Shown: positions 939 through 45,080 of the stretch, one piece after another
Layout: every line of letters begins with the position of its first letter
Numbering within the stretch: position 1 is the stretch's first letter
NCBI GenBank assembly: GCA_018398585.1
Contig: JAGTTD010000022.1
Coordinates: forward strand, 9,215,501-9,279,500
DNA length: 64,000 nt
Source of the DNA: Simmondsia chinensis
Lineage: Eukaryota > Streptophyta > Magnoliopsida > Caryophyllales > Simmondsiaceae
Direction: 5' to 3'
Program-made: the position numbers and the translations under genes
Notes under the pieces: model-generated
Told to the model about the DNA's origin: nothing
What the model saw: only the letters and a program-made list of their open reading frames with translations
The model's database searches: none

Positions 939-3900
939 CTGCGTCACCCAATTACACACCCAAGCACCGATCAATCATAAATATGTATGAGTGATTTAAA
1001 ACATGCTATTGCATTAAAAACGAGGCTAATATACCTTAGATGGGGTGATATGTATGAGAAAAGGATAAAAGGACAAAATATTTATCATTATATACAAGAA
1101 CATGCGGTAGGTTAAGAACAAGATGGCAATTAACATCACCATAGATGACTAAAACGATGACATGTCAATAAAAACAATGTTGTGGCAACCAAAAAGATTA
1201 TACGAAAATGAGAAAGATGATGTGACTGATAATATGACAACTGAAAAAATAACATGATAGTATTGGTTTAGTAAACATCCTTGTTATTCTTTTTTCCAAA
1301 AGATATTGCCTTTATCTTCTTAGGCTTGACAGCAACTCCAATACCCCATTAAAAACCAAACATAACCAAATATTTTACTGTAAGATTGACCTGATGTATA
1401 CAGCTAAAAAAATTTTAGCTGAAAAAAGAAAGGTAAAACCAAATGCACCTTAGATCAAGGTCACTCACACCACTCACTACCGCTAGGGGTGTAAACGAAT
1501 CAAACATTCAATAAACTACTCGTGATTGAAATTGATTGCGGCTCCTTCGTGTTTAGTTTGGGGGGTAAGATAGCTCATTGAACCAAGTTCAAGCAGACTC
1601 AATAAGCTTAACAAGCCAAGTTCAAACATAAGGGTGTTCTGCTCATTAACAGTTGCGAATAGTCTAATAAGAGCTCATTCAAAGCTCATCAAGGGCTTAT
1701 TAACAATTGGTATAAGCTCAAAAACAACCAATGATGGCTAAATAACAACCTGAATAGCTCAATGGGTAGCCAGCTTGACTAAATAGCGTAGCCAGCTCGA
1801 CTAAATAGCAAGCTTGGCTCAGTAACAAGCTCAAATCGACTCAATAACGAGCTCAAATTGACTCGATTAGGCGAACAAGCTGCGTATTGAATGCACCAAA
1901 ATCTTATCAAAATGAATTCAAACAAAGGGCCGAAAACTCGATAAGAGCTCGGCTCGGACTCGAGTTGATTAAGGCTAATGAAGCTTAAGTTCGAACATTA
2001 GTTAAGGCTAATGAAGCTTAATTCCAAACAAGGAGGTGCTCGACATGTTTACACCCCTAGCATAAGATCAACGTAACAACTACTAAAATAGTCTCTAGAA
2101 TATTCTACAACACCAGGGTTTCTCATGTATTTACTATTATGTCCTCCTAGTAGTGTAAACCCTAAGGGTCAAGATGTCATTTAAATTACTCATTATATTA
2201 TCATTCAATAATATAACTTCTCCTTTTATTCACATGGTATCAAAGCCATAATTCCTAACCCTACACTTCCCTCTTCAAACCCTAACCCTAGCCGCCTGTG
2301 CCGCCCTCTGTAAGCCGCCATAAGCTGCCCCCCCTGTCGGTGCCCAACCTCGGCGCACCTAGTACCCCCCGGCTCCACCCTCTCTCTCTCTCTACCGGTG
2401 CACCCAGTACCGGTTTCACCCTCTCTCTTCGACACCAAGGTGCCGTTAGTCCCTGCAGGTGTCTCTCTCACCCGACAGCCCAGGGCTACTGTCACTCTCT
2501 CTCCGGCGTCTCTCCCTCTGGTGCGCACAGGACTCGTTGTCGCCTCTCCCCCACCTGGCGCGACGAATTCCTCACTGCCGGTAGTGTCCAACGCCACCCT
2601 TGTCGGTCACATCACCGCGCCTCATACTCTCCTAGGGTCGATTGATACCAATGTCGCCATCTCCAATAATCTACCACCAAATGGGCGGCCTTTAGTGAAC
2701 CCGACATTTAACTTGGGCATCCCCCTCTCCCTCCCAAATCCTGATTATCCCAACACTGGTTACCACCGTGGCAGTGTCAGTACCCCACTTGCTGTCCCTA
2801 CAACGGCTGTCACCTCTCTCTCCCCCATCCAGAATGCCTTCCCCAATCACAATTATATAAACACTAATACATATCTCCCACCCCCCTCCCCGTTCTACTT
2901 CCTCTTTCGAGTATTATGAGCATAATCACTATTAAATTAGAAACAAGCACTGACCATCCTGCATGGCAAGAACAATTTAATATGCTCTTACTTGCTCACC
3001 AACTACAAAGGTTTATTGATGGATCTCATCCATGTCCCCCCACCCACATCACTCTACAGGTCGGCCCCCCTTAACCCGATTACCTCACGTGGCTCCGCAC
3101 GAATCAAAGTCTTCGACCCTGCATAGCTGCTACCCTCTCTCATTCCCTAATAAATGACATAGTCCGCCATCCAACCTCAAAATCCATGTGGAATACCCTA
3201 GCTAAGTGCTTTCGAGATCACTCCATGGCCAAGGAGTGTGATCTCGGAACCCAACTTATGAATCACCGTAAAGATGGCAAAACAATGCACATTTACCTCT
3301 CTAAATTAATAGCAATTATTGATGACTTAGCTGCCATTGACTCACCCGTGTCTAGTAGAGAATTTCAATGCTATGTCCTCTACGGCTTACCCCCTGAGTA
3401 TACCACCTCTGCCACTTTCACTCGTCAAATGCCAAAACACTACACCTATGAGGAGCTCAAAACTGCCTTCCTGAATGAAGCCATCGCCCTAGCCCGATAT
3501 TCTGGTCATGCCCCAACTGCTCCACACATGCTATCATTGCCTCCAGTCAACCCACCCCTAGCTCCCATTTCAACTATGGGGGGCGTGGTGGACGTGTTTG
3601 TAGCTGACGCAGGCATGTTAGGTTGCGGTGGTCGCCACAATCACCAGACTTCTTCTGTCCTGCCTACTCCTAAGGATAGCGCGCCTCCAGCCGCAGCTCC
3701 CTTCCCGGTTCGACCTTCTTTTGGTTCTTCCTCTTAACTCTTACGCAGGTGTGCTCAAGCCCGAACCTCAATACTGTCAAATTTGCTCTCAACCTAGTCA
3801 ATTGTTGTTGCTTGTCCCCATTGCTCTGATGGCACTTCCTTCCCTGACCCGTCTCACTCACTGGTTGCCATGACTATTGGAGAACCACATGACTACAACT

Positions 3901-6900
3901 GGTATCCAGACTCGAGAGCTTCTAACCACATGACGCCTCATTTGGGTATTCTCACTAACCTTCTTCCCTATTCTAGTCATAAAAGTGTTCTTGTTGGTAA
4001 TGGAACATTGTTGCCTGTAACCCATGTTGGGTCTGCCTCTCTCACTACTTGCGCAAAACCCCCAAGCTTACCTAATATCATGCTTGTCCCTAAACTCACT
4101 CATAACTTACTTAATCTGTATTAAACAACTATGTCACGATAACAACTTTAGAGTTGAATTTGACTCTCACTCTTTCTGTGCCAAGGACAACACTATGGGG
4201 ACGTTGCTTCTACGAGTACCCAATAAAGGACCTCTCTATAGTTTCTCATTGCACGACGTTGGACTTGTAGCTCAAGTCAAACATGGAGATATGTGACATC
4301 AGTGTTAAGGACATTTAGGTAGTTCTGTTCTAGATTTTTTATGCAAGAAACATTCGCTTCCAGTTGTTAAATATTTGAATAAATGTAAGTCTTGTTGCTT
4401 GGGTAAATCTAGAAAATTGCCTTTTGAACGTGCACAACATAATACTACTATGCTGCTTCAGTTAATACATTCGAATGTTTGGCAATCACCTATTTTCTCC
4501 ACATCAAATTACAAACACTATGACCTTTTTATCGACGATTTTTCAAGATATACATGGCTCTATCCGATGCAGTGAAAATCAGAGCTCTATGAAATTTTCA
4601 CCTTTTTTAAAACCCTTGTTGAAAATCAATTTAAAACAAAATTAAAATTTTCCAAAGCGATGGTAGGGGCAAATTCAACCATCGGCACATGAATGCGTTG
4701 TGTCGCGAGTTTGGAATTCACTTTCGCCAATTTTGTCTTGATACCCTAGAACAAAATGGGATGGTGAAACGCAAGCATTGACACTTATCTGAAATGGCAC
4801 GGACGCTCCTAATTCACTCAAAACTTTCTTACAAATTTTGGGATGACGCCTTTTGTACTGTCTGTTTTACTATAAAATGTCTCCCTACCCCACTTCTTTC
4901 AAATGCATCACCTTTTGAAAAACTTTTCAAAACCAAGCCAAACCATAACCGTTTTAGCGTCTTTGGATGTGCTTGTTATCCCAACCTCACATCCCATGCC
5001 ACTCATAAACTTGTCCTGCACTCAACAAAATGCATTTTCTTAGGCTATGCAGCACGATACATAGGATATAGGTGTCTTGATCCCATAACTAATTGAATGT
5101 ATACAAGTCGTCATGTAGTATTTGATGAATCATGTTTTCCCTACACTAAACTAACTCCTCCTCCAATGTCTACGAGTGATGCCCCAGTTCCATCACCCCT
5201 TGTTCTCCAATCCCCTCCAGTTGTCCCATCTCTGGCCTTATCTAACTGACCGGCAGTTGGTCTAAACAATGCCAGCGTGGCCCATGCTGCTGGGTTGTCA
5301 ACGCCGCTCACTGAGTCGGCTCCCACTTCGGGCAAGGCCTTGGTCGATGGACCAGGACCCCTTGTCCCCCGCCCCTCTACCCTTGGACACATCCGGGGAT
5401 GAACCAAACCCACCTGAACCCCTGCCTCGTCCCTCAGCTATCCCTACACCCTCGCCCTCCGGGGTTCGTAAACTTACATCGGGTATTCGTAAAACCAGTT
5501 ACCCCCTCTCCCTTTCATCCACACTTGTCATACAGGAACCCACGTGTTACTCACAGGCTGTGAAAAATCCTAAATGGTAGGAAGCCATGACGGATGAATT
5601 GAGTGCTCTCATTACTAACAACACTTGGGATTTGGTCGCATATGACCCACGGCATAACCTCATAGGAAGCACGTGGAAGTACAAGGTCAAATATAAAGTG
5701 AATGGTTCTGTTGAGCGCTTTAAGGCTTGCCTTATCGCTCAAGGCTTCCATCAACAAGAAGATCTTGACTTCAAGGAAACCTTTAGCCTCATTGTCAAAC
5801 CCTCCAACATACGCTTTATACTTAGCCTTGCAAGCACATACAACTGGCCCATACGACAGTTGGATGTCAAAAACGCTTTCCTACATGGTCAGCTGCAAGA
5901 AGAAGTGCATATGAGACAACCTCAAGGCTTTATACACCCAAAGTTTCCAAAACATGTGTGTCGCCTCGAGAAGGCTCTATATGGACTCAAACAAGCCCCC
6001 CGGGCATGGTTCCAACGGTTCAGTGCTTTTGTCTTTAGTCAAGGCTTTCAGTGTTGTCGAGCTGACCCATCCTTCTTTATCCACAAAACTGCCTCACACC
6101 TTACATGCCTGCTTCTCTACGTAGATTACATTATACTCACTGGCACCGATGCTGACGCCTCACGAGTCTAATTCGGTCCCTCTCTACCCAGTTTGTTATG
6201 AAAGACCTTGGACCCCTACACTTTTTCCTAGGGATAGAGGCAAAACATGACCACCAAGGACTATTCCTTTCCCAACATAAGTACACAGAGGACCTTCTAA
6301 CAAAACATGACCTCCATAAGCCAAACCGATTAAAACCCCCTACCCACCCGAGCACATGTGTCTCTGAGTGAAGGTGAGCCTCTTGAAGATCCTACTGAGT
6401 ATCGAAGTGCGGTGGGTGCCCTCCAATACTTGACCATGACCCGTCTTGATATTAGCTATGCTATCAACTTGGTCTCTCAGTTCATGCATGCTCCCCGTAC
6501 ACATCATTGGCAGCGCATCCTCAGATACTTAAAGTCCACCTTTGATCACGGTCTCACTATCACTCCCGCTTCTTCCCCCACAGTCACAGCCTTTGCTGAT
6601 GCTGACTGGGGTGGCTGTCCTGACACCCGTCGCTCTATAATAGGCTATGCTCTATATCTAGGTCCTAACCTCATCTTGTGGCGGGCTAAGAAACAAGCCA
6701 ATGTATCCAAATCCACCACTGAGTCAGAATACCGTGCTATCGCTTAAGCTGTTGCTAAAAGTGATTAGATTCGCTGCCTCATGAATGATCTGGGACTTCA
6801 ACACCCGGGACCGATAACTATCTAATGTGACAATGTCTCTGCTTCTTGCCTTGCCGCCAATCCCGTGTCTAATGACAGAAGCAAGCATGTTGATGTTGAC

Positions 6901-15900: not shown

Positions 15901-18900
15901 TGTGGAACATGACCCTTGGGGAGGAGGTGCACTTAGTGCATGGTTTCCATGCGAGGCGTGTTCCCTAGGAGAGTAGAAGAGCCTAGATTAATCTAGAAGA
16001 GTGGGGAACCGTGGACCATTAACACACAATTGGGAGTAGGAGTAGTGGGACGCATGTAATTAATTGTAGTTCTAGAATGTTCTTGACTTGAAGAGCCTTG
16101 TACATATTTTGCCTATAAATAAGAGCGGTGGGCATTCCCACCGGATGACCAACTCATCCAACCAAAACTCTCTCTCTTTGTTCAAGTGTTCCTTTAGAAT
16201 TGTGTGCATCATATTTTCCTCTCTTTCCATACTTGCTTCCATGTGTGTCTAAATTCCGCATATTAGCACTTGGTGCATGTTTTTGGGGGGGGCGCGCTTG
16301 ACTTAACGAGGGACTTTCAGAATGAAGTTAAGTGGCATCACGGGCCGGGACTAGGTTCAAGTGTCATCCCGTGACAGTGCGCTCTACAGTGAAGATTGAT
16401 TTGAGACTTGGGAATTTGCCCTTTCCCACACACTTTTTCGTGTGCGACCTTCTTGATTGTGAATCATTTTAGGACGTCCTCGGCAATTCGATCATTGCAT
16501 GACCTATAATGGATTTGACAACTCTATGACGATTCCTGTTGATGGAGCTTATAATACTCTGAAGCCTCAATTGCCACATACCCAGGCCCACTTCACCACG
16601 TTGTTCGTGCAGCCCTTCTTCTCGTTCGAGGAACGAACTATTCTGTTTCAACACGGGGAGAATGATGCAGCTTAATTTTATTTAATTTAGTTTTTATCAT
16701 TTTATATTTAGGAGATTGGTTTTCCATTAGATTTAGGATTTATTTTATCGAGTATTACTTTAGGGTTTAGCTTTCTATAAATAGAACTTTGTAATTCATT
16801 ATTTGAAAGTTTTGATGAAACAAAAATTGTGTTGTGTTTTGATTAGCTATTTGTGCTCCATCATATAGTCACGAAAAGACAAGGCAATGAACAACCAAAC
16901 AGCTCAAACTCATCCCGTCCTTTGAAGTTCCACTGGGGACAATCAGTGAACGCTCGAATGTAAAGTCGGTAACACAAGTGTCATGAAGCCAGCAATCAGG
17001 TCACCTCCATATGCACGCAAATGGAGTGGATTGCATGTAGATTCATGCATTATTTTGGGTATTAACATTTGTCTACCCATTCGTGATTTGAGTTAAGTGG
17101 CATTGGGAGTGGATCACTAAAATAACCAAAAGTTAAACCAGTCAAAAGCCAAGTATGGATAACATGGACTCAAATTGGATTTTCAGACACATCATGGTCA
17201 CGATTGTCTCGCGAAAGTGTTGTGTAGTAGATGTTACTTATGGGTCAAGGCAATTGCTTGGGTTTTCTAAGGGAATGTAAGGTGCTTTTAAGCCTTATAT
17301 TTGCATAAATTTGATAAACAACAAGAATCATAAATTCTTACACCCTTTTGATAGTTTATGACTTAAAATACACCTAAAATATGTTTTAAGTAATTAAAGA
17401 ATAATATATATGCATTATGAGGATTATTACAAAAGTAACTTTACATAATGGTCAATTGCATAACGGCTAGCCTGTTATGCCCTGTTATGTGATGGCATTT
17501 CTTTGATTCTGTGAAGGAAAGGGATGTAGATTAGGAAGGTCTCATGCCTCGCATATAAGGCGAGTAATTCTGTCCAGTTTGAAATTTAAGTGCCAAACTC
17601 AATCCTTCAGCTATAAATTTGACATTTGTCAAAGTTTCATCATACATCGAGAAATAACACTCCTCTACAATTTCATTCCCTTGCATTATAATTTCTATCT
17701 TAAGTTTCCGCAAGTTACATTGCAGTTACTTACATCAGTCCCTTCAATTTTATTTGATCACATTCAGTTACTTATTTTCGAATATGTTACAGTAAGAATG
17801 ACAAAGAACTTTGAAAGAGAGGATTAACAACAGATTACGCATACTAGATAAGAATGATAATCAGATGGCCATGGTCATTCAATCTAATAAGACAACATGC
17901 AGAAAGGGTTCAACAAGCACGGTTAAAAAGGACGTCAGCAGAAAACAAGCTCGTCTGTGAGTGTTAAAAAAAGGGGAATTTATCACTTAGCTATCCCAAG
18001 TTTTGGTCCTTTATCAACTAGATATCTTGATGTTTTAATACATATAATGTGATATCCCAGAGGCTAGGAAGCATTGATACTCCTTTTTGCCCAAAGTATC
18101 AGTGTCCGACACTTATCCGACACCGACACGCTTCCGATATGTCCTGATACATGTCCAATACGTGAAAAAAGTATCCGATACTTCTTTTTTTAAATTTTGA
18201 ACCTCCAACACGTTTCCAATACGTTTCCAACACGCTTCCAATCAGCGGCGGATCCACGTTAGGGTGAGGGGGGGCTTAAGCCCCCCTGAATTTTAAAATA
18301 AATTTTAGTAGGCATATACATAAATCACATGTGACACTTTGGCTTGATGGTTTTTACCCCTATAAGTAAGTAGGGGTGCCTGAGTTCGAATCCCTTGGAT
18401 TTCATCCTTTTTTTTTTATGGCATTTTTATCTTTTTTTTTTAATAAAAACAAAATTAATTTAAATCTAATAAAATAACCTACCCACCCCTAAAACGAAAC
18501 CCCACCCCACGTCGCCCCCACCACCCCCGCCACCTGGCCACCGATTCTCCGGCGCCTCCACTCCGCTGCCAATCAGATCCTCCTCTCGCACCCACAACCA
18601 AGCATCAGCCATATTAAATGTAAGTTTTGTTAATTTTTTGTCCTATTTAATAATAATATACAATACTTTTAGGTTTTCATCTCATATATCTCTAATTAAA
18701 ATTCTAATTTTATAAATTTTAGTAAGAGATATCAAATTTCTCCTTAATTAGAGAATAATTACTTGTCTCTAAGTTCAAATCCTTTATCGAGTTTGGAATA
18801 ATATGGTCTTTGTTACTTTGCTTGATATTTGTTATTAGTATATAAATTAGTTGACAATTATTCTTGTTTTATAACAGAGTTAACTATGTTCAAGTACTTT

Positions 18901-21900
18901 AAAAGAAAATCGCATTTGCAAGGAGATGATAATCCTTGTCCTACTAGTACTAAACAAAGTCAACAAGAAATCAATCTAGAGGACCTTTCTGCAGATCCAG
19001 GAAATCGAATTCGAATTATCGACTATCATCCTAATATTCGTGATCAAGTTCGTAGAGCATATTTGCAAAGGGGTCCTTGCCAACCTCGAAACCACAACTT
19101 TCCGTTAACAAAATATGGACAACAACAAAGGCGATTCAATCAGGATTGGTTTGATGAGTTTCATTGGTTAGAATATAGTATATCGAAAGATGCTGCTTAT
19201 TGCTTGTGTTGTTATCTCTTTAAGAACGATATCGGAGGTCAAGGGGGTGGTGATCATTTTGTTAATGAAGGATTTTCAAATTGGAAGAAAAGAGAGAAAC
19301 TCTCTCTTCATGTAGGAGGTGCAAATAGTTCTCACAATAAAGCTTGAGGAAAATGTGAAGATTTAATGAATCAAAAGCGACACATTGAGACTAGCATTCA
19401 TAAGCAAACAAATGAAGCTCGAGCCAATTATAGAAAACATTTGACTGCTACTATTGAGGCTATCCGATATCTTTCATTGCAATCACTTGCATTCCGTGGT
19501 CATGATGAAAGTGAAGATTCTTCAAATCCAGGAAATTTTATCCGATTGTTGAGAACTTTTGGTAGAATTAGTTTGGATGTCGATGCAGTCACCTTAAGAA
19601 ATGCTCCAAAGAATCAAAAGCTAATAGCTCCCCAAATTCAAAAAGAAATAGTAAGTGCATGTGCAACGGAAGTTGTCAATGTAATAATTAGCGAGCTTGG
19701 GGATGCCCCCTTTTCTCTTCTTGTTGATGAAGCTCGTGATATGTCAATAAAGGAGCAAATGGCCTTTGTGATACGCTATGTGGATGACAAAGGAAATGTA
19801 ATTGAGCGCTTTTTAGGCGTAGAGCATGTAACCGATACAAGTGCTCATACATTGAAGAGCACCATTGATGATGTGTTATGTAGATATGGCCTTAGTATGT
19901 CGAGATTGCGAGGTCAAGGTTATGATGGAGAAAGTAATATGCGAGGTCAATTTAATGGCTTGAAAGCACTTATTATGAAAGAGAATCCTTATGCATATTA
20001 AGTCCATTGCTTTGCTCATCAATTGCAACTAGCTCTAGTAGCTGTTGCAAGAAACCATAACCATATATCTTCATTGTTTGTGTTTATAAGCCGATTGTTG
20101 AGTGTTGTTGGATCTTCATGTAAACATCGAGATATGCTAAGGGAGAAACAAGCTAAAAAGATTACTAAAGCACTTGATAATGGGGAGCTTTCAAGTGGAC
20201 GCGGTTTGAATCAAGAGACTAGTCTCAAACGTTCGGGTGATACTCGTTGGGGCTCACATTATAGAACATTAGTGAGCCTGGTTCATACGTTTGATGCAGT
20301 AGTCGATGTGCTAGAATTCATTGGTAAAGATGCAAAACTCGATGTTCATCGAACAGAAGCACGAAATATAGTGGAGAGACTTCTATCTTTTGATTTTGTT
20401 TTTAGTCTCTTTTTAATGCAAAAACTATTGGCAATTACGAACGAATTGTCAAAAGCACTGCAAAGTAAAGACCAAGATATTGTTAACGCGATGGCTTTAG
20501 TGAAATTGTCAAAAGATCGACTCCAAGTGATGAAAGAAAGCGGATGGACTTCATTATTGGACGATGTCTCCTCATTTTGTGAAAGTCATGGCATTGTTTT
20601 TCTTGATATGAATGGTGTTTATATAGCTAGAGGACAAAGACGAAGACGTGGAGAAGAGGAAATGACAAACATGTATCACTATCACTGTTATTGACATGCA
20701 ACTTCAAGAATTGAATGCCCGTTTCACCGAGTCTAACACTGAGTTGCTCCTTTGTGTGGCATGCCTTAATCCATTAAATGCATTTATCCACTTCAACAAA
20801 GATAGATTGATACAATTTGCTAGCTTCTATCCGAAAGACTTTACTTCATTTGATGTATGGAAGCTTGAAGATCAACTCGATACCTATATTGCTGACATGC
20901 ATGCTAGTATGGGTTTCTCAAAGTTGACTAGCATTGGTGAGCTTGCACGGAAAATGGTGGAATGTGGTGAATATAAGTTGTATCCACAAGTTTATTTGCT
21001 CTTGACTTCGGCATTGACTTTACCAGTTGCAACTGCCACAGTTGAGAGAGTATTTCAAGCTACGAATGCCATTAAGACCAAATGGCGCAACCGAATGGGT
21101 GATGAATAGCTTAGTGATAGTTTGATTCTCTTTGTTGAAAAAGGTATTTTTGAAGATGTTAGTGTTGAAACAATTATGGAACGACTCCAAAACATGAAAA
21201 CTCGACGGGGTTGTTTGTAAATGCTTAGTGCTATTTTAGTTTATATTGGTAATAATAATTTTTGTTCATAATATGTTTATTTTATAGTAATTTAAGATAT
21301 AGAAATATTATTTTCTGTTATTTTTTTAATTTTTATAGTACTTTCCTAGTTTGATCAGATGCGTTTTCTCTATTTTTTTTAAGTCGTGAACTATTAAAAA
21401 AATATCGATTGTGAATTTTTTAATAATTTTTATTATGTAATTTATTATTTTTTATTCAAGCCCCCCCCCCCCCCCGGACCAAAATCCTGGATCCGCCGCT
21501 GCTTCCAATGCGTATCCGATACGTGAAAAAAAGTATCCTATTCTTTTTATTTTTCTAATTTTGAATTTCCGACACGCTTCCGATACATTCCGACACGTTT
21601 TTGTTGGTTTGACTTTAAAAACATAATATTATAATATATTATTATATCAAATGACAATATGCATATTAAATAGTTAAATTATGCTATATAAATTTTAATA
21701 TGATTATATTTAAAAATAAACTAATATTTTCAAATGTTCTATAGTTGTTTTGGTTAAAAAAAAAATATTGTATACACTTGAAAGAGAGAGAGTGTGATGA
21801 AAAAAGGAGAAAGGAGAAGTCAAGGAGAGAGAGAGAGAGAGAGACAGCAACGATTTTACTTTTTCTTAAGTTATTATAATTTTTTTTTTTTCTGTTTTTT

Positions 21901-24900: not shown

Positions 24901-27900
24901 AACGGCCAGTAACGGTTCTTGAAAAATTATTTCCGAAAAATAAACGTACCTGTTAAGAAAAGGATCATCCGCACTATTTTACCAATGTGGTATACAATTC
25001 CCCCATAAAACTAAAGATTAGCTAGTATCATTTTTCCAACAATCCCCACAAATGATACAAGTGGAAGAGAAGAAAGAAGAATAGATTGGGCAAAGGGAGT
25101 TCAGTTTTTCAGTGCCGATGTCTCGCGACTTGAATCATCACCTAGTATAACCCAAGTTTAAGACCAACAGCTTGCGAAGATGACTTTCGTCTTGAACCTC
25201 ACAAGGGGTTGTATAGTTTGCCACTTAGACACATACTAAACTCCAGATCTCGACAACTCCTCCAGTTTGGCACGTTTTATTGGAGATTCGCTCGTCCTGG
25301 ATATTCATAGGCGCTCTAGAAGGCAAGTCTTAAACCTTCATAAGGAACAGCCACACTCCCACACCTACATAGGTGGATCCCATCAAGTGTGTGTTACCGC
25401 ACACCACCAAACATATGGTTATAGATCCATTAAAAGCTAAAGCTCAACCTTACCCCTTGATAACATAACGACAATGTCCATTAAGTGCAAGCCTCGCTTA
25501 CACCACCAAACATATGGCTATGGACTCGTCTCCACACTGTCACACCATAAGGATGGACAACATAAAATACAATGCACTCCTTGAATAAAACTATGATTTT
25601 TCATATTGAACCTGTTAAAACCAGGTTAAATACATCACAGTTCATTCATATATAGACTTCAGTCCCATCCCCCTCGATGTTTCCACAACCATTTTTTCCG
25701 ACATAGTGTCTTTATTAATGGATCCACAAGGTTCTTTTCAGACCTTACACAATTTAGTGATATACCAAAGCGGGCACCAACACGCTGTCACCCGATCCCA
25801 TTAGAACTCCGAAGTTAAGCATGCTTAAGCGAGAGTAGTACCAGGATGGGTGACCTCCTGGGAAGTCCTCACCCTCAGGTTGGGTGCGTAGGGAAACAGC
25901 CTCTCTTCAGGTTAACACCCTGAAGGGGAAAGGCTGCATACATCAGCGCCCCCCAGACCCTGCGTAGGCAGGAGCCCTTGAGGCACTGGGTATGTTCCTT
26001 GTACACAATTTAGTGATATCACTGTCTTTCGAATAGAGGGCTCATTTACCAGGCAGTAATGCATCGAATCCTATTAGAACTCCGAAGTTAAGCGTTCTTG
26101 GGCGAGAGTAGTACCAGGATGAGTAACCTCATGGAAAGTCCTCGTGCTGCCAACCCTATAAGGTTGGGGGTCCTCGGAAACAGCCTCTCAGCAGGGTTAC
26201 ACCCTGAAGGGGTAAAGCTGCATACATCCACCCCCCTCAGACCACGCTTAGGCGGGAGCCCTTGAGGCACTGGGTCTGTTGTTGTTGTACTTTCTTCCAA
26301 GTAGATTGTTTCTGATCTTAATCCTAAGGCGCACAAGTCTCCTCTTACCAAACCCATCAAGTGTGCAGTGTCCACACCACCCGTTACGGACTATGGGTTA
26401 GGTTAAAGCATCTAGCTCAACCATCATAACTGGCATTTCAACACTATATTGGAATAAAGCGATACTTGAGAGTTGACCATCGCCAACATCAATCACAAGT
26501 TGCTCTTACCCCCCACATTAAGGTATCTGCAACGAGCTGTTAAACAACTAGTTCTATCGCCTACCAACTTCAACAAGAGTCAGTATAACACAATAGTGGA
26601 GCAAATATCATATCAATAAAATCATAACTCCACCCCAAGTACTCATATAATACACATATCGTATGTATATCGTACATACAGTTGGCACGAAAGACATATA
26701 TCGCAAGATTGGTCAATTCCAAATATCATCGCAATTGTGAAACATTATCATCTCAAATTAATTGGATCTCCACCAATTTAGGTCACAAGAGACCATATAC
26801 CCATTCTCGTCGTACTTAGAGTACCTGCATTATCAATATTAAGGGTAGTCCATGTATTACCAATATTATGTCAAATTTTGGTGACATCAAGAGAAAGAGG
26901 CACAGAAGATCATAATTCACAAAGTGCCTTTACAATTCAACTTAAGGCAACTCAAGCCTCTGCAAGGCTCTCAAGCCCAAGTGCTAGCATCATCAAGCTA
27001 TTCACACTGACTTTGGACAGTCACCAAAATAATATTTCCACCATAATCAATTTCCAAAAGCTAGCTATAACTAGCACACATTGTCAAAAACACAATAATC
27101 ATAAAAGATTATGATCAGACAACATCTCATAGGCTATTGGGTGCTCTTACAACCCCCACAATGGAATGTCTCACACTACATTCCTAAGACATTCATTTTT
27201 TCTACCTGCCAACTCAATCTTTAAGGACAACTAAACAATGCAGGTTTTAGTGGGGTGTCACAAAATATAACTCACAAACGACCCTGAATACATTGTCATT
27301 AGTAGAATATCTCTCATTGATATCAGACACCCAACACGACAAGGAGTCTATTATAATGTAAACCCTATTCATAGTACTTCACTAGTACCTCAACAATTTA
27401 ATTAGAGCACTTCAGTATTCATTATTTGGATCAATGTATATAGACTAGATCTACCACTGACATATGATATAGTAGGAAGAGTGTTATGTTATTCATCAAA
27501 AGATAATGCTATCAATCACCTTAGCGTATTTAGCTTGGGATGCCACGTTTTTTTTCCTCACCAGGTGAACACTAGGGTCATATAGTATGTCATCCAAATA
27601 ACCAAAGTCCCTAAAAATTTTATCCACATAATCATGAGTTAAACCCTTCAGACGTTCTCATGGTTTTCACAGTAAGTATTACAATTGCCTCACACAGATC
27701 TTTCACATCATATATGGACTCAAGAAGTGCTACAATATTCACACTCTTGCCAAAAGGGGCGTATTATCAACATAACCTTAATCTCTCCTATAACATCAAG
27801 AAGATCATCGTTTAGTACATATGTTTCTTCTGATCTAACACTATCCACCAGCTGATAGGCCCAAATGCTAAGAACCATGACTGAGGAGGCCAGATCGAAA

Positions 27901-38350: not shown

Positions 38351-38570
38351 TGGGAGCAAAATCTTCCGGATAAATGTTAAGTGTGGAGATTGTTTGTTTC
38401 CGTGGCCAAATTTATTAGGGCTAGTGTTAATGGCATGAGTCTTGAGTTTCAAGCAGTTAGAATTGTAAGAGATTTATTTATAGATGGTCTTGGCTGGATT
38501 ATAATGTGCATAAGAGCAAATCGAAATATTGTAATCCTCAGTTTAATAGTGCATATTATTGCTCCCCCTC

Positions 38571-39518
38571 GACATGTATGAGGATGCACAAACTAATGTG
38601 CGTACACGGGAGAAGGAGACAGAAACATTCCCAATAACAGTTGGGGTATACCAAGGTTCTGCCTTGAGCCCCTTTCCGTTCATTTTAGTCATGGATGAGC
38701 TCACCAGGAACATCCAAGAAGATGTACCTTGGTGTATGCTGTTTGCAGATGACATAGTATTAGTGGGGGACTCTTGAGTCGACATAAGGGAGAAGCTAGA
38801 ATTGTAGAGAAGGGCTTTGGAACCGAAGGGCCTACGAATCAGTAGATCCAAGACCAAGTACTTGGAACTCAAGTTCGGTCACTCTACCGTGCCTAGTACA
38901 GAAAATGTCAAGATAGGGTCTAAGACCCTACCGAGAAAGGAGAGTTTCAGATACTTGGGTTCCATAGTACAGCAGAATGGTGAGGTTGACGAGGATGTCA
39001 ACAACAGGATTAAGGTAGGCTGGCAGAAATGGAGGATGGCTTCCGGGGTACTTTGGGATAGAAAGGTCCCGCTAAAGCTAAAGGGAAAATACTATAAGAC
39101 AGTAGTGAGACCGGCTATATTGTATGGGGCAGAGTGTCGCTCAATGAAACAACAGCACACCCAGAAGATGAAGGTGGCAGAGATGAGGATGCTGCGATGG
39201 ATGTGTGGGCACACAAGGAAGGATAGGGTCAGAAACGACGCTATAAGAGGAAAGTTTTGCGTAGCCTCGATCGAGGACAAATTGAGGGAGCAACGCTTGA
39301 GATAGTTTGGACACGTCAGGAGGAGACCGACCACAACTCTAGTCAGGAGATGTGAACATCTACATACGACGCTAGGAAGAAGAGAGAGAGGTAGGCCTAA
39401 GAAGAGTTGGATGGAGACGATCCGACATGACCTGACCCACCTAAACCTAAGTGAGGAGATGGCCTTGGATAGAGCTCGTTGGAGAGTGAGCATAGGGGTA
39501 GTCGATGTAGCGGCCTAG
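38571..39518 (+). pseudogene. RTE LINE reverse transcriptase C-terminal part
   Basis: A single reading frame through three nonsense codons to TAG at about 39518. Motifs run from RT block B' (GSALSPF) and C (FADD) through the thumb (EPKGLRISRSKTKYLELKFG) to the RTE C-terminal segment ending LSEEMALDRARWRVSIGVVD. Confidence 0.92.
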
Positions 39519-39840
39519 AGGAATGCTACGTATTGCTGCTAGCATAGGGTTTATAACGCGGATTTACCCCATGTGGTGTGCTTATGTGCGTATGCGTATG
39601 TGTGTATGGATGTGGTCTATTTGCCTTATTATGTGCCATGGATGTGTCTTTGACATGACCTAACCCTTTTCAGGATGCCTTGCTTCCAGGACGGCAAAAT
39701 CTTCAGGTTGGGGGTTCTCGGAAACTGTCTCTCTTCCACTCGAAAGGGTTAAGGCTGCATGCATCCACCCCCCCCCCCCCCCCGACCCTGCTTTTGCAAG
39801 AGCCCGTGAGGCACTAGGAATGTTGTTGTTGTTGTTGTTG
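38571..39840 (+). mobile_element. RTE-clade LINE, 5'-truncated, young insertion
   Basis: 1,270 bp with a perfect 17-bp TSD TATTATTGCTCCCCCTC (38554-38570, 39841-39857) and a (TTG)n tail. It encodes the RT C-terminal half (ITVGVYQGSALSPFPFILVM, WCMLFADDIVLVGDS with the catalytic ADD) and the C-terminal domain (ESFRYLGSIVQQNGEVDEDV, AEMRMLRWMCGHTRKDR, RGRPKKSWMETIRHDL). Stops: TGA 38775, TAG about 38804, TAG about 39303; two sit where Trp is expected. The 3' UTR carries a C16 run and the tail shared with the 5S SINEs. Confidence 0.95.
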
Positions 39841-39912
39841 TATTATTGCTCCCCCTCATTGGCTACTTTGTTCTGCTCTCTAGGGATATGGTCAAACTAC
39901 ACACCATCGAAC

Positions 39913-43874: not shown

Positions 43875-44462
43875 TTTTTTGTCTGGAATAGGGACACTAT
43901 CTATTTCTCAATTTCTCTTTCTCAATTCAATTGGTTTTTTTTTTTTTCCATTCAATTGAACGTGAGTGAAATTAGCATGAAGACCGATATAGGTTTGTTC
44001 ACCTCCTCCTGCATCGGTTCATCATTGATGAAGAGTTAACTTGCTCTCAAGGGTTAGATGATATCTTAGTCTTTTTATTCTTGTATTACTTTTAATTTTC
44101 GAATTATTAGTTTGTTTACATGAGTTGCTTGATTGTGAGAAATACTTTAAAATATTTTGTTTTTATCGATTATTCAATTGAGATGATTATTGAGTTTGTA
44201 ACCTTTGATCATTGATGTTGATATTTGTAAATTAATTCTTTGCACTTGTAGTCTTAGGATTAATTAATCAAGTAATAGTATTCACAGAATTATTAATAGT
44301 GCTTATCTTCCCTATGTTTAGTTAGATACAGTCAATATGTGATAATTAACAATACGTTCAGTAGAGCCTATTTTCTTATGCTTTAGTTAGATATGGTTGA
44401 TACTTGATACTAATAACATAACCTTAGTTAGTTGAAACTTGTAACTTGAACCACTACCGTGT

Positions 44463-44755
44463 ACAACAACAACAACAAACCCAGTGCCTGCAAGGGCTCC
44501 CACAAAAGCAGGGTCTGGGGGGGTAGATGTACGCAGCCTTCCCCCTTCAGGGGGCTACCCCGAAGAGAGGCTGTTTCCGAGGACCCCCGGCCCGAGAAGC
44601 TGGTCCGCAGCATAGAGCATGTGACCTGGTAGCAAGAGAGCATCAAAGCATGAATAGGGCAAAACACAGGGCAAGCAAAACAACAAACTCAAAGCAAGCC
44701 ACATCAAGCAAAAATCAAAGGATAGGTAGGCAAGTAGCAGCTCATGAGAGCATTA
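44463..44755 (-). mobile_element. LINE 3'-end insertion (RTE type)
   Basis: 293 bp with 14-bp TSD AACCACTACCGTGT (44449-44462, 44756-44769). On the minus strand it ends GAGCCCTTGCAGGCACTGGG plus (TTG)n and contains GGAAACAGCCTCTC and AAGGCTGCGTACATC, the tail of the RTE LINE and the 5S SINEs. The 5' part is LINE-UTR-like and not 5S. Confidence 0.88.
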
Positions 44756-45080
44756 AACCACTACCGTGTGACAATCAATAATCCCAATTCAAGAGTTAAC
44801 GCAAGAAAATTTTGGCTAATGATGGATTCAAAACCTTAAGTTCCCGTTCCAAATTCTTTTCCCCTTTACAAGTAAAATACTTAGTTTAATTTTCGTTTCC
44901 TTAGATTAATCAATACAAAATCTCATGATTTTCCTCAAATCAATTTAGGTCATAGAATAAATTCAAGCACTCTTAGTCGCTGTGGTTTGACACTCTCACC
45001 CCAGACTCAATTTTAGATGTGTTTAGTGGATAAGGTTTTATATTAAATTTTGATAGACATAGAAAAATACATCAAGATTT

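What the first reader, a model, noticed from the sequence alone, without database searches (positions are those of the whole stretch)
25746..26019. Chimeric SINE: 5S rRNA head, RTE-LINE tail, perfect 18-bp TSD
Copy 1 has a 5S-like head with intact internal promoter boxes, then about 125 bp that match the 3' end of the RTE LINE found in this same window (38571-39840), and a TSD of 18 bp. Most plant SINEs I know of are tRNA-headed. 5S-headed (SINE3-type) elements are established in fish. This looks like an independent plant 5S-SINE that uses RTE machinery; I cannot tell whether it has been described.
Basis: partly seen in the sequence, partly recalled or inferred. Interest (0 to 1): 0.87.

Follow-up and report, generated by a model that had tools for sequence, protein, structure and literature searches.

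The report
Plant 5S-headed SINE family, RTE tail
A short "parasite" DNA element in a plant genome has joined a copied 5S ribosomal RNA gene, as its likely on-switch, to the tail of a larger mobile element that probably copies it, and thousands of copies are scattered through the genome; plant elements of this class have been described as starting from transfer RNA.

Summary
Window 25764-26001 is one copy of a dispersed 5S-headed SINE in an 831-Mb plant assembly (species not identified). The neighbour at 26037-26288 belongs to a second subfamily; a third was found genome-wide. Junctions are constant: 2,695 exact 25-mers for subfamily 1, 823 for subfamily 2. A head-only 22-mer without tail letters gave 708 matches; of 20 sampled, 19 carry the tail by BLAST and the last carries part of it. 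Of 60 subfamily-1 copies not ranked by similarity, 44 reach the 5S start, 57 the 3' end, and 35 have TSDs scoring 14 or more, against 3 of 1,200 controls. A T stands 10 nt upstream of the TSD in 37 of 49, as reported for plant RTE LINEs and their SINEs. All 20 aligned RTE 3' ends carry an internal TTTT, lost there in the three SINE consensuses. Best reading: a Pol III SINE with a 5S promoter, moved in trans by a plant RTE. 5S+RTE SINEs are published for springhare and moths; nine full-text searches showed none for plants. Repbase, Dfam and preprints could not be checked.

The parts
25746..25763 (+). 5' target-site duplication of copy 1
   Evidence: perfect 18-bp repeat; TTTT at -11 to -8 upstream of it
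25764..26001 (+). copy 1: 5S-headed SINE, subfamily 1
   Evidence: 92-95% to 39 other scored genome copies with nearly constant ends
25764..25870 (+). 5S-derived head of copy 1 (5S up to GTCCTC)
   Evidence: Rfam RF00001 53.4 bits; two consensus-like copies 68.5 and 72.2 bits
25814..25828 (+). box A of copy 1, three substitutions from the family consensus
   Evidence: sequence against consensus; box positions recalled from plant 5S genes
25844..25861 (+). box C of copy 1, identical to consensus
   Evidence: sequence against consensus; box positions recalled
25877..26001 (+). RTE-derived tail of copy 1, starting AGGTTGGG, ending TTCCTTG
   Evidence: aligned to 20 RTE 3' ends
26002..26019 (+). 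3' target-site duplication of copy 1
26021..26037 (+). candidate degraded 5' TSD of copy 2 (13 of 17 match; not above controls)
   Evidence: locus L071
26037..26288 (+). copy 2: 5S-headed SINE, subfamily 2; in the consensus a 120-nt head, then ATA, then RTE tail ending (TTG)n
   Evidence: 88-91% to 39 other scored genome copies with nearly constant ends
26289..26305 (+). candidate degraded 3' TSD of copy 2
   Evidence: locus L071
38571..39840 (+). 5'-truncated RTE LINE (A type), with stops; 17-bp TSD at 38554-38570 and 39841-39857
   Evidence: related copy L059 has an RVT_1 domain
44463..44755 (-). short insertion with an RTE-type 3' end (B type) and a 14-bp repeat at 44756-44769 and 44449-44462; its tail shares the longer middle hairpin of the SINE tails

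Best explanation
This is a plant SINE family of the 5S (SINE3) type. A 5S rRNA-derived head of about 107-120 nt supplies an internal Pol III type-1 promoter; transcripts should start at 5S +1, which is where full-length copies start. The head is joined to about 115-130 nt from the 3' end of a plant RTE-clade LINE. The RTE protein, supplied in trans, recognises that tail and inserts copies by target-primed reverse transcription, leaving TSDs of 14-25 bp (mean 18) with a T about 10 nt upstream. At least three subfamilies are best explained by one fusion. Subfamily 1 (most frequent by junction count) lost 7-9 nt at the end of the 5S part and ends in a T-rich run; subfamily 2 keeps a 120-nt 5S head and a (TTG)n end; subfamily 3 keeps the end of the 5S part, stops in TTGC plus a T-run and has the most diverged copies sampled. 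Shown: family, junctions, TSDs, T signature, tail homology, loss of the RTE's internal TTTT. Inferred: Pol III transcription, RTE dependence, a single fusion.
For: Copy number and constant junction: 1,359+1,336 exact 25-mers for subfamily 1, 432+391 for subfamily 2, reversed-pattern controls 0. Nearly constant ends in the 40 scored copies of each search, window copy included. Head-only pattern: 333+375 matches, control 0; of 20 sampled, 19 carry the RTE-like tail by BLAST at E 1e-5, and L176 matches the subfamily 3 consensus to position 163, so has part of the tail. TSDs: 26 of 39 above the control's 99th percentile, 21 of 30 at 12 or more against a control maximum of 10 in 600, 35 of 60 at 14 or more against 3 of 1,200, 12 of 20 at 10 or more against 3 of 600. 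T at -10: 37 of 49 pooled, p 9e-9 uncorrected, background 0.35; 26 of 35 in the 60-copy sample, which overlaps the pooled set. Tail against the RTE-A 3' consensus: 98/121, 112/129 and 101/120 columns. TTTT at one site in 20 of 20 aligned RTE ends, window RTE included; GCTTTTG in 0 of 60 subfamily-1 and 0 of 20 subfamily-3 copies; any TTTT in 1 of 30 subfamily-2 bodies. RTE: RVT_1 E 9e-35 in L059, relatives of 57-64% in records named Malus, Cajanus, Nicotiana, Glycine.
Against: No transcript or retrotransposition data. The host's tandem 5S genes were not found, so the head was not compared with its source. No intact full-length RTE was shown (L068 has stops between its pieces). The best-scoring relative of the RTE frame is a record labelled as a catfish (51%). 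TSD starts are ambiguous next to T-rich tails, and in the 60-copy sample the first TSD base is T in only 18 of 35. 25 of 60 copies lack a TSD at score 14, and the control maximum there was 21. The 60 and 20 samples were found by exact patterns, so they lean towards better-kept copies. New TTTT runs occur in 7 of 60 subfamily-1 and 4 of 20 subfamily-3 bodies. Promoter boxes are not clearly better kept than the rest among copies. Two of 39 copies end in A-runs. RTE TSDs were sought without a control, and 10 of 19 fetched copies could not be scored.
Confidence: 0.9

Rival explanations
1. Sporadic chimeras: 5S RNA joined to RTE RNA by template switching on separate occasions, with no family.
For: The two window copies differ at the junction (about 11 nt of gaps), and template switching is a proposed origin of such fusions (HaSE3 passage).
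Against: 2,695 and 823 exact junction 25-mers, nearly constant ends, clear subfamily consensuses.
Confidence: 0.02
2. The 5S head replaced the tRNA head of an older tRNA-headed SINE that already had this RTE tail (as proposed for HaSE3), so the tail came through a SINE rather than directly from an RTE.
For: Tobacco TS SINE has a tRNA head and an RTE tail ending in TTG (passage). All three SINE consensus tails share a 7-nt longer hairpin that the RTE-A consensus lacks.
Against: The RTE-type element at 44463-44755 has the longer hairpin too, so an RTE-B source would explain it. Whether tRNA-headed SINEs with this tail exist here was asked three times, and RTE-B copies were asked for once; none was answered.
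Confidence: 0.35
3. Cassandra-type elements: 5S sequence inside LTRs of a small LTR retrotransposon.
For: Cassandra carries 5S promoter sequence and is widespread in plants (passages).
Against: The element ends directly at its TSDs, with an RTE-type 3' end, and starts at 5S +1; the only direct repeats found at 25500-26400 are the two SINE copies and the TSD.
Confidence: 0.01
4. The family is real but already catalogued (Repbase, Dfam, a preprint or a subscription journal), only not in the library searched.
For: Most subscription papers and all preprints are missing; repeat libraries for this plant may hold it.
Against: [quoted passage not shown] a 2024 paper on 5S-related plant elements gives SINEs in animals as its example of such promoter capture (passage); nine full-text searches on the subject listed no plant 5S SINE (capped listings).
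Confidence: 0.25

Closest known systems
HaSE3 (5S rRNA-derived SINE of moths, PMC3272025, passages seen)
   Same: 5S head with box A, IE, C; 3' tail shared with an RTE LINE; TSDs in some copies (19 and 8 bp reported for two)
   Different: Insect; its RTE ends in TGA repeats; body and tail shared with tRNA-headed HaSE1; reported as much less abundant than HaSE1
Ped-1 of springhare (listed in PMC3747384 Table 1, passage seen)
   Same: 5S head, RTE-clade (BovB) tail
   Different: Mammal; BovB partner; sequence not compared here
Tobacco TS SINE and legume SINEs with RTE tails (PMC3747384, PMC13295347, passages seen)
   Same: Tail from a plant RTE, ending in TTG repeats or Tn; split T-stretch TSD signature reported for legume SINEs and LINEs
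   Different: tRNA head in TS; here the head is 5S
Angio-domain / Au-like SINEs (PMC9033089 passage; motif resemblance recalled)
   Same: Plant SINEs with a conserved 37-bp 3' domain; the GACCCTGC...GGGAGCC...GCACTGGG stretch looks alike from memory
SINE3 / DeuSINEs of vertebrates (listed in PMC3747384 Table 1, passage seen)
   Same: 5S-derived head
   Different: CR1-type or RSg-1 tail, vertebrates
Cassandra TRIM (PMC10853983, PMC10886601, passages seen)
   Same: Plant mobile element using the 5S promoter
   Different: LTR retrotransposon with 5S sequence in its LTRs; no RTE tail

Membership tests
SINE | Short, non-coding, dispersed in many copies with constant ends | tested here: met
   consensuses of about 237-252 nt; 2,695 and 823 exact junctions; nearly constant ends in 40 scored copies each
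SINE | Target-site duplications of LINE type | tested here: met
   35 of 60 at score 14 or more against 3 of 1,200 controls; lengths 14-25, mean 18, in 49
SINE | Transcription by RNA polymerase III | not testable with these tools
   Promoter boxes present in the consensus and start at 5S +1; no transcripts seen
SINE3 (5S-headed SINE) | Head derived from 5S rRNA covering box A, IE and C | tested here: met
   RF00001 above gathering score in both window copies and in the two other copies tried; 120-nt head in the subfamily 2 consensus
RTE-mobilised SINE | 3' end shared with an RTE LINE of the same genome | tested here: met
   98/121, 112/129, 101/120 columns identical to the RTE-A 3' end consensus
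RTE-mobilised SINE | Plant RTE insertion signature: T-stretch about 10 nt upstream of TSD | tested here: met
   T at -10 in 37 of 49, 26 of 35 in an overlapping larger sample, 7 of 12 in subfamily 3
RTE-mobilised SINE | TSD starting with T | tested here: inconclusive
   33 of 49 but 18 of 35 in the 60-copy sample; first base ambiguous beside T tails
RTE-mobilised SINE | Moves with RTE protein in trans | not testable with these tools
   needs an assay
Angio-domain SINE superfamily | 37-bp 3' Angio-domain | not tested
   domain sequence not seen in the passages read; resemblance is recalled
Cassandra TRIM | 5S sequence within paired LTRs | tested here: not met
   element ends abut the TSDs and the 3' end is RTE-like

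The most novel reading that the evidence does not exclude
Plants evolved their own 5S-headed SINE class on RTE machinery, with thousands of copies in three subfamilies. After the fusion it lost the TTTT that would stop Pol III inside the captured RTE tail and, in two subfamilies, gained a terminal T-run. Such elements could be the kind of donor that Cassandra's proposed origin (a SINE3 landing in an LTR) requires and that the papers I saw do not report from plants.
Probability: 0.6. Interest if true: 0.8.

Novelty: new variant of a known kind. Interest (0 to 1): 0.7.

Why it matters
Plant SINEs are described as tRNA-derived (review passage). A high-copy 5S-headed plant family would show that promoter capture from 5S genes happened in plant SINEs too, apart from the animal cases. 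It pairs with a plant RTE in the same genome, so the rules of RTE trans-mobilisation (tail, T-stretch target, TTG or T end) can be tested directly. It would make the proposed SINE3 origin of Cassandra (speculation reported in PMC10886601, passage) more concrete, and it warns annotators that dispersed 5S hits may be SINEs rather than 5S genes.

Tried and rejected
Sporadic template switching and Cassandra were tested and rejected (see rivals). The host was sought through a hAT-like ORF: best named hit Tripterygium wilfordii at 68%, too weak to name a family; a literature search for Euonymus gave nothing usable. The yerba mate genome paper was looked at for 5S and SINE passages only and did not help. 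The window RTE frame 38808-39305 had no Pfam hit at 0.001; a longer copy, L059, did. ARAGORN found no tRNA in the window. The host's tandem 5S genes were sought with Rfam RF00001 (six requests, none answered) and with a head-only pattern, which instead showed dispersed SINE heads; the 100 of 708 places listed are dispersed, so the arrays were not seen. The promoter boxes are not clearly better conserved among copies than the rest. The first TTTT count in the 20-copy sample (7 of 20) included flanks of truncated copies; recounted within alignments it was 6 of 20, and 7 of 60 in the larger sample. One search failed after the subfamily 3 consensus, which was clipped at its start; one search repeats it. 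That consensus was made from 16 of the 20 loci; L166, L167, L176 and L181 (truncated or interrupted) were left out of it but counted. In one search no control was run, 10 of 19 fetched RTE copies had no 3' end found by the script and L059 gave no repeat.

Full report
The window. The finding is confirmed. Rfam calls two 5S rRNA matches, 25764-25881 and 26036-26155, both above the gathering score. Copy 1 is flanked by a perfect 18-bp direct repeat. Both copies match the 3' end of the window's RTE fragment (copy 1: 70% over 129 columns, E 8e-12; copy 2: 73%, E 2e-19), and both match better a second RTE-type 3' end at 44463-44588 on the minus strand (85%). The RTE at 38571-39840 is a 5'-truncated insertion with a perfect 17-bp TSD; the element at 44463-44755 is a short insertion with a perfect 14-bp repeat. 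The TSD candidate of copy 2 (13 of 17, score 5) is not above the controls.

A family, not a pair. The window lies in an assembly of 831 Mb in 35 contigs. A search with copy 1 gave 4,281 first-look candidates, of which 40 were scored; the 39 other than the window copy are 92-95% identical, and 38 of these start at query positions 15-24 and end at 251-266 (one starts at 5), that is, the element almost without the TSDs. One further row (77%) is a subfamily-2 copy next to one of them. I fetched the 39. Their alignment with copy 1 gives one consensus; the head-tail junction GTCCTCA-CCCTCAGGTTGGG stands at the same place without indels in all 40 rows, with scattered substitutions. A search with copy 2 gave 5,294 candidates, 40 scored, the 39 others 88-91% identical, again with nearly constant ends; 30 loci, copy 2 included, were aligned.

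Genome counts. The exact 25-nt junction of subfamily 1 occurs 1,359 times on one strand and 1,336 on the other, control 0. That of subfamily 2 occurs 432 and 391 times, control 0. A 22-nt pattern wholly inside the 5S head, with no tail letters, meant to find ordinary 5S genes, occurs 333 and 375 times, control 0; the 100 places listed are dispersed. I fetched the first 20, all on contig 1. BLAST with the subfamily 1 and 2 tails finds the tail in 19 of 20 at E 1e-5; L176 shows its start and an early 3' end, and matches the subfamily 3 consensus to position 163 of 242. L181 is also cut short (to 194). These 20 define a third subfamily. The counts are of exact matches, so true copy numbers are higher; I make no precise estimate, and some of the 708 could be ordinary 5S genes elsewhere.

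Anatomy. The consensus head of subfamily 2 is 120 nt, the length of a 5S gene, with box A GTTAAGCGTGCTTGG at 50-64, IE GAGAGT at 67-72 and box C GGATGGGTGACCTCCTGG at 80-97 (box positions recalled from plant 5S genes). Full-length copies start at or next to 5S +1. The tail starts AGGTTGGG in all three consensuses and follows the RTE 3' end to the start of its TTG repeats. Subfamily 1 lacks 7-9 nt at the end of the 5S part and ends TTCCTT plus a T-run; its 5' end aligns with that of subfamily 3 (212 of 244 columns over the whole element) but not with that of subfamily 2. Subfamilies 2 and 3 share 209 of 235 columns. Subfamily 2 ends in (TTG)n. Between the consensuses of subfamilies 1 and 2 the 82-nt core from CACCGG to GTCCTC is identical, while 109 of the other 125 ungapped columns are, which suggests constraint on the source copies, or exchange of heads; subfamily 3 has one difference in that core. 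Among the copies themselves the boxes are not clearly better kept.

Target-site duplications. Each locus was compared with controls in which its left flank was replaced by that of another locus. Subfamily 1, best-matching copies: 26 of 39 above the control's 99th percentile of 9, control maximum 12 in 780. Subfamily 2: 21 of 30 at 12 or more, control maximum 10 in 600. Because these sets were picked by similarity to the window copies, I also took the first 60 listed places: 44 reach the 5' end, 16 start later, 57 reach the 3' end, 35 have TSDs at 14 or more (30 of 44 full-length, 5 of 16 others) against 3 of 1,200 controls (maximum 21), and identity to the consensus averages 91%. This sample still requires an intact junction, so it leans towards better-kept copies. 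Subfamily 3: 12 of 20 at 10 or more against 3 of 600, mean identity 87%. 5' truncation and long variable TSDs are the marks of target-primed reverse transcription (established knowledge).

RTE signature. A 2026 paper (PMC13295347, passages) reports that plant RTE LINEs and the SINEs sharing their tails have a T-stretch about ten nucleotides upstream of a TSD that starts with T, with SINEs ending in Tn and LINEs in (GTT)n. Here, in 49 copies with TSD score 14 or more (23 of 40, 16 of 30, 10 of 20 from the three sets then in hand), T stands at -10 in 37 of 49 against a background of 0.35 (p 9e-9, uncorrected for 22 positions looked at), and the first TSD base is T in 33 of 49. In the 60-copy sample, which contains the last of those sets, 26 of 35 have T at -10 but only 18 of 35 start with T; in subfamily 3 it is 7 of 12 and 10 of 12. 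The first base is ambiguous beside T-rich tails; I lean on the -10 position.

The partner. RTE 3' ends are abundant (10,280 first-look candidates; the 40 scored, window RTE included, are 89-100% identical). Copy L059 has an open 498-aa frame with a reverse transcriptase domain (RVT_1, E 9e-35), with relatives of 57-64% identity in records named Malus, Cajanus, Nicotiana, Glycine and others; the best-scoring record is labelled as the catfish Hemibagrus guttatus, 51%. Copy L068 has, by eye, endonuclease-like and RT pieces in one frame separated by stops. No intact RTE was shown. Among 19 fetched RTE copies, 5 gave TSD candidates at 14 or more, 3 weaker ones, 10 could not be scored and 1 gave none; both window elements gave perfect repeats; no control was run.

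Loss of an internal terminator. The shared RTE tail contains TTTT at one site (mostly GCTTTTGC) in 20 of 20 aligned RTE 3' ends, window RTE included, and in the element at 44463-44755. Pol III stops at such runs (established knowledge). The three SINE consensuses read CTTAGG or CGTAGG there; GCTTTTG is in 0 of 60 subfamily-1 and 0 of 20 subfamily-3 copies, and any TTTT in 1 of 30 subfamily-2 bodies. This fits a change from Pol II to Pol III transcription after capture of the tail. It is not absolute: 7 of 60 and 4 of 20 copies carry a TTTT elsewhere in the body, six of the seven in subfamily 1 at one place (CTCTTTT), perhaps a minor variant.

What is known. 5S heads with RTE tails are published for springhare Ped-1 and moth HaSE3 (passages). 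Plant SINEs with RTE tails are published: TS SINE with a tRNA head and legume SINEs. [quoted passage not shown] Searches on the subject listed no plant 5S SINE (listings capped at 20-30 papers); in one plant paper a repeat table has an entry of 68 labelled 5S-Deu-L2, probably a library label. I saw search listings and passages, no whole paper. Repbase, Dfam, SINEBase, preprints and most subscription papers were not available.

Verdict. The family and its structure are as good as certain; mobilisation by RTE and Pol III transcription are well-supported inferences. It is a new variant of a known kind: a 5S-headed, RTE-tailed SINE in a plant, in at least three subfamilies.

Noticed in passing
L031 and L046: Two of 39 subfamily-1 copies end in a long A-run instead of T; L031 has a perfect 19-bp TSD, which hints at occasional use of another (L1-type) machinery or a polyadenylated transcript.
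   Followed up: no
L019, 281-960, and window 25746-26305: In both places a subfamily-1 copy lies just upstream of a subfamily-2 copy in the same orientation, and BLAST shows no shared flanks; perhaps repeated use of T-rich targets.
   Followed up: partly
L102, L103, L109, L111, L112, L148: Six of 60 subfamily-1 copies share a C-to-T change giving CTCTTTT in the tail; a minor subfamily or a mutation hot spot.
   Followed up: no
window 44463-44755, minus strand: Short insertion with an RTE-type 3' end and a perfect 14-bp repeat; upstream of the shared tail it does not resemble the RTE-A 3' end, so it may be a second RTE lineage or another non-autonomous element. A genome search with it did not complete.
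   Followed up: partly
window 18826-20694: hAT-like transposase frame in three pieces separated by two in-frame stops (by eye); best relative of the last piece from Tripterygium wilfordii at 68%.
   Followed up: partly
window 3075-6171: ORFs that look like Copia gag and polymerase pieces (by eye).
   Followed up: no
L048-L067, RTE 3' ends: The C-run in the RTE tail varies widely in length between copies.
   Followed up: no
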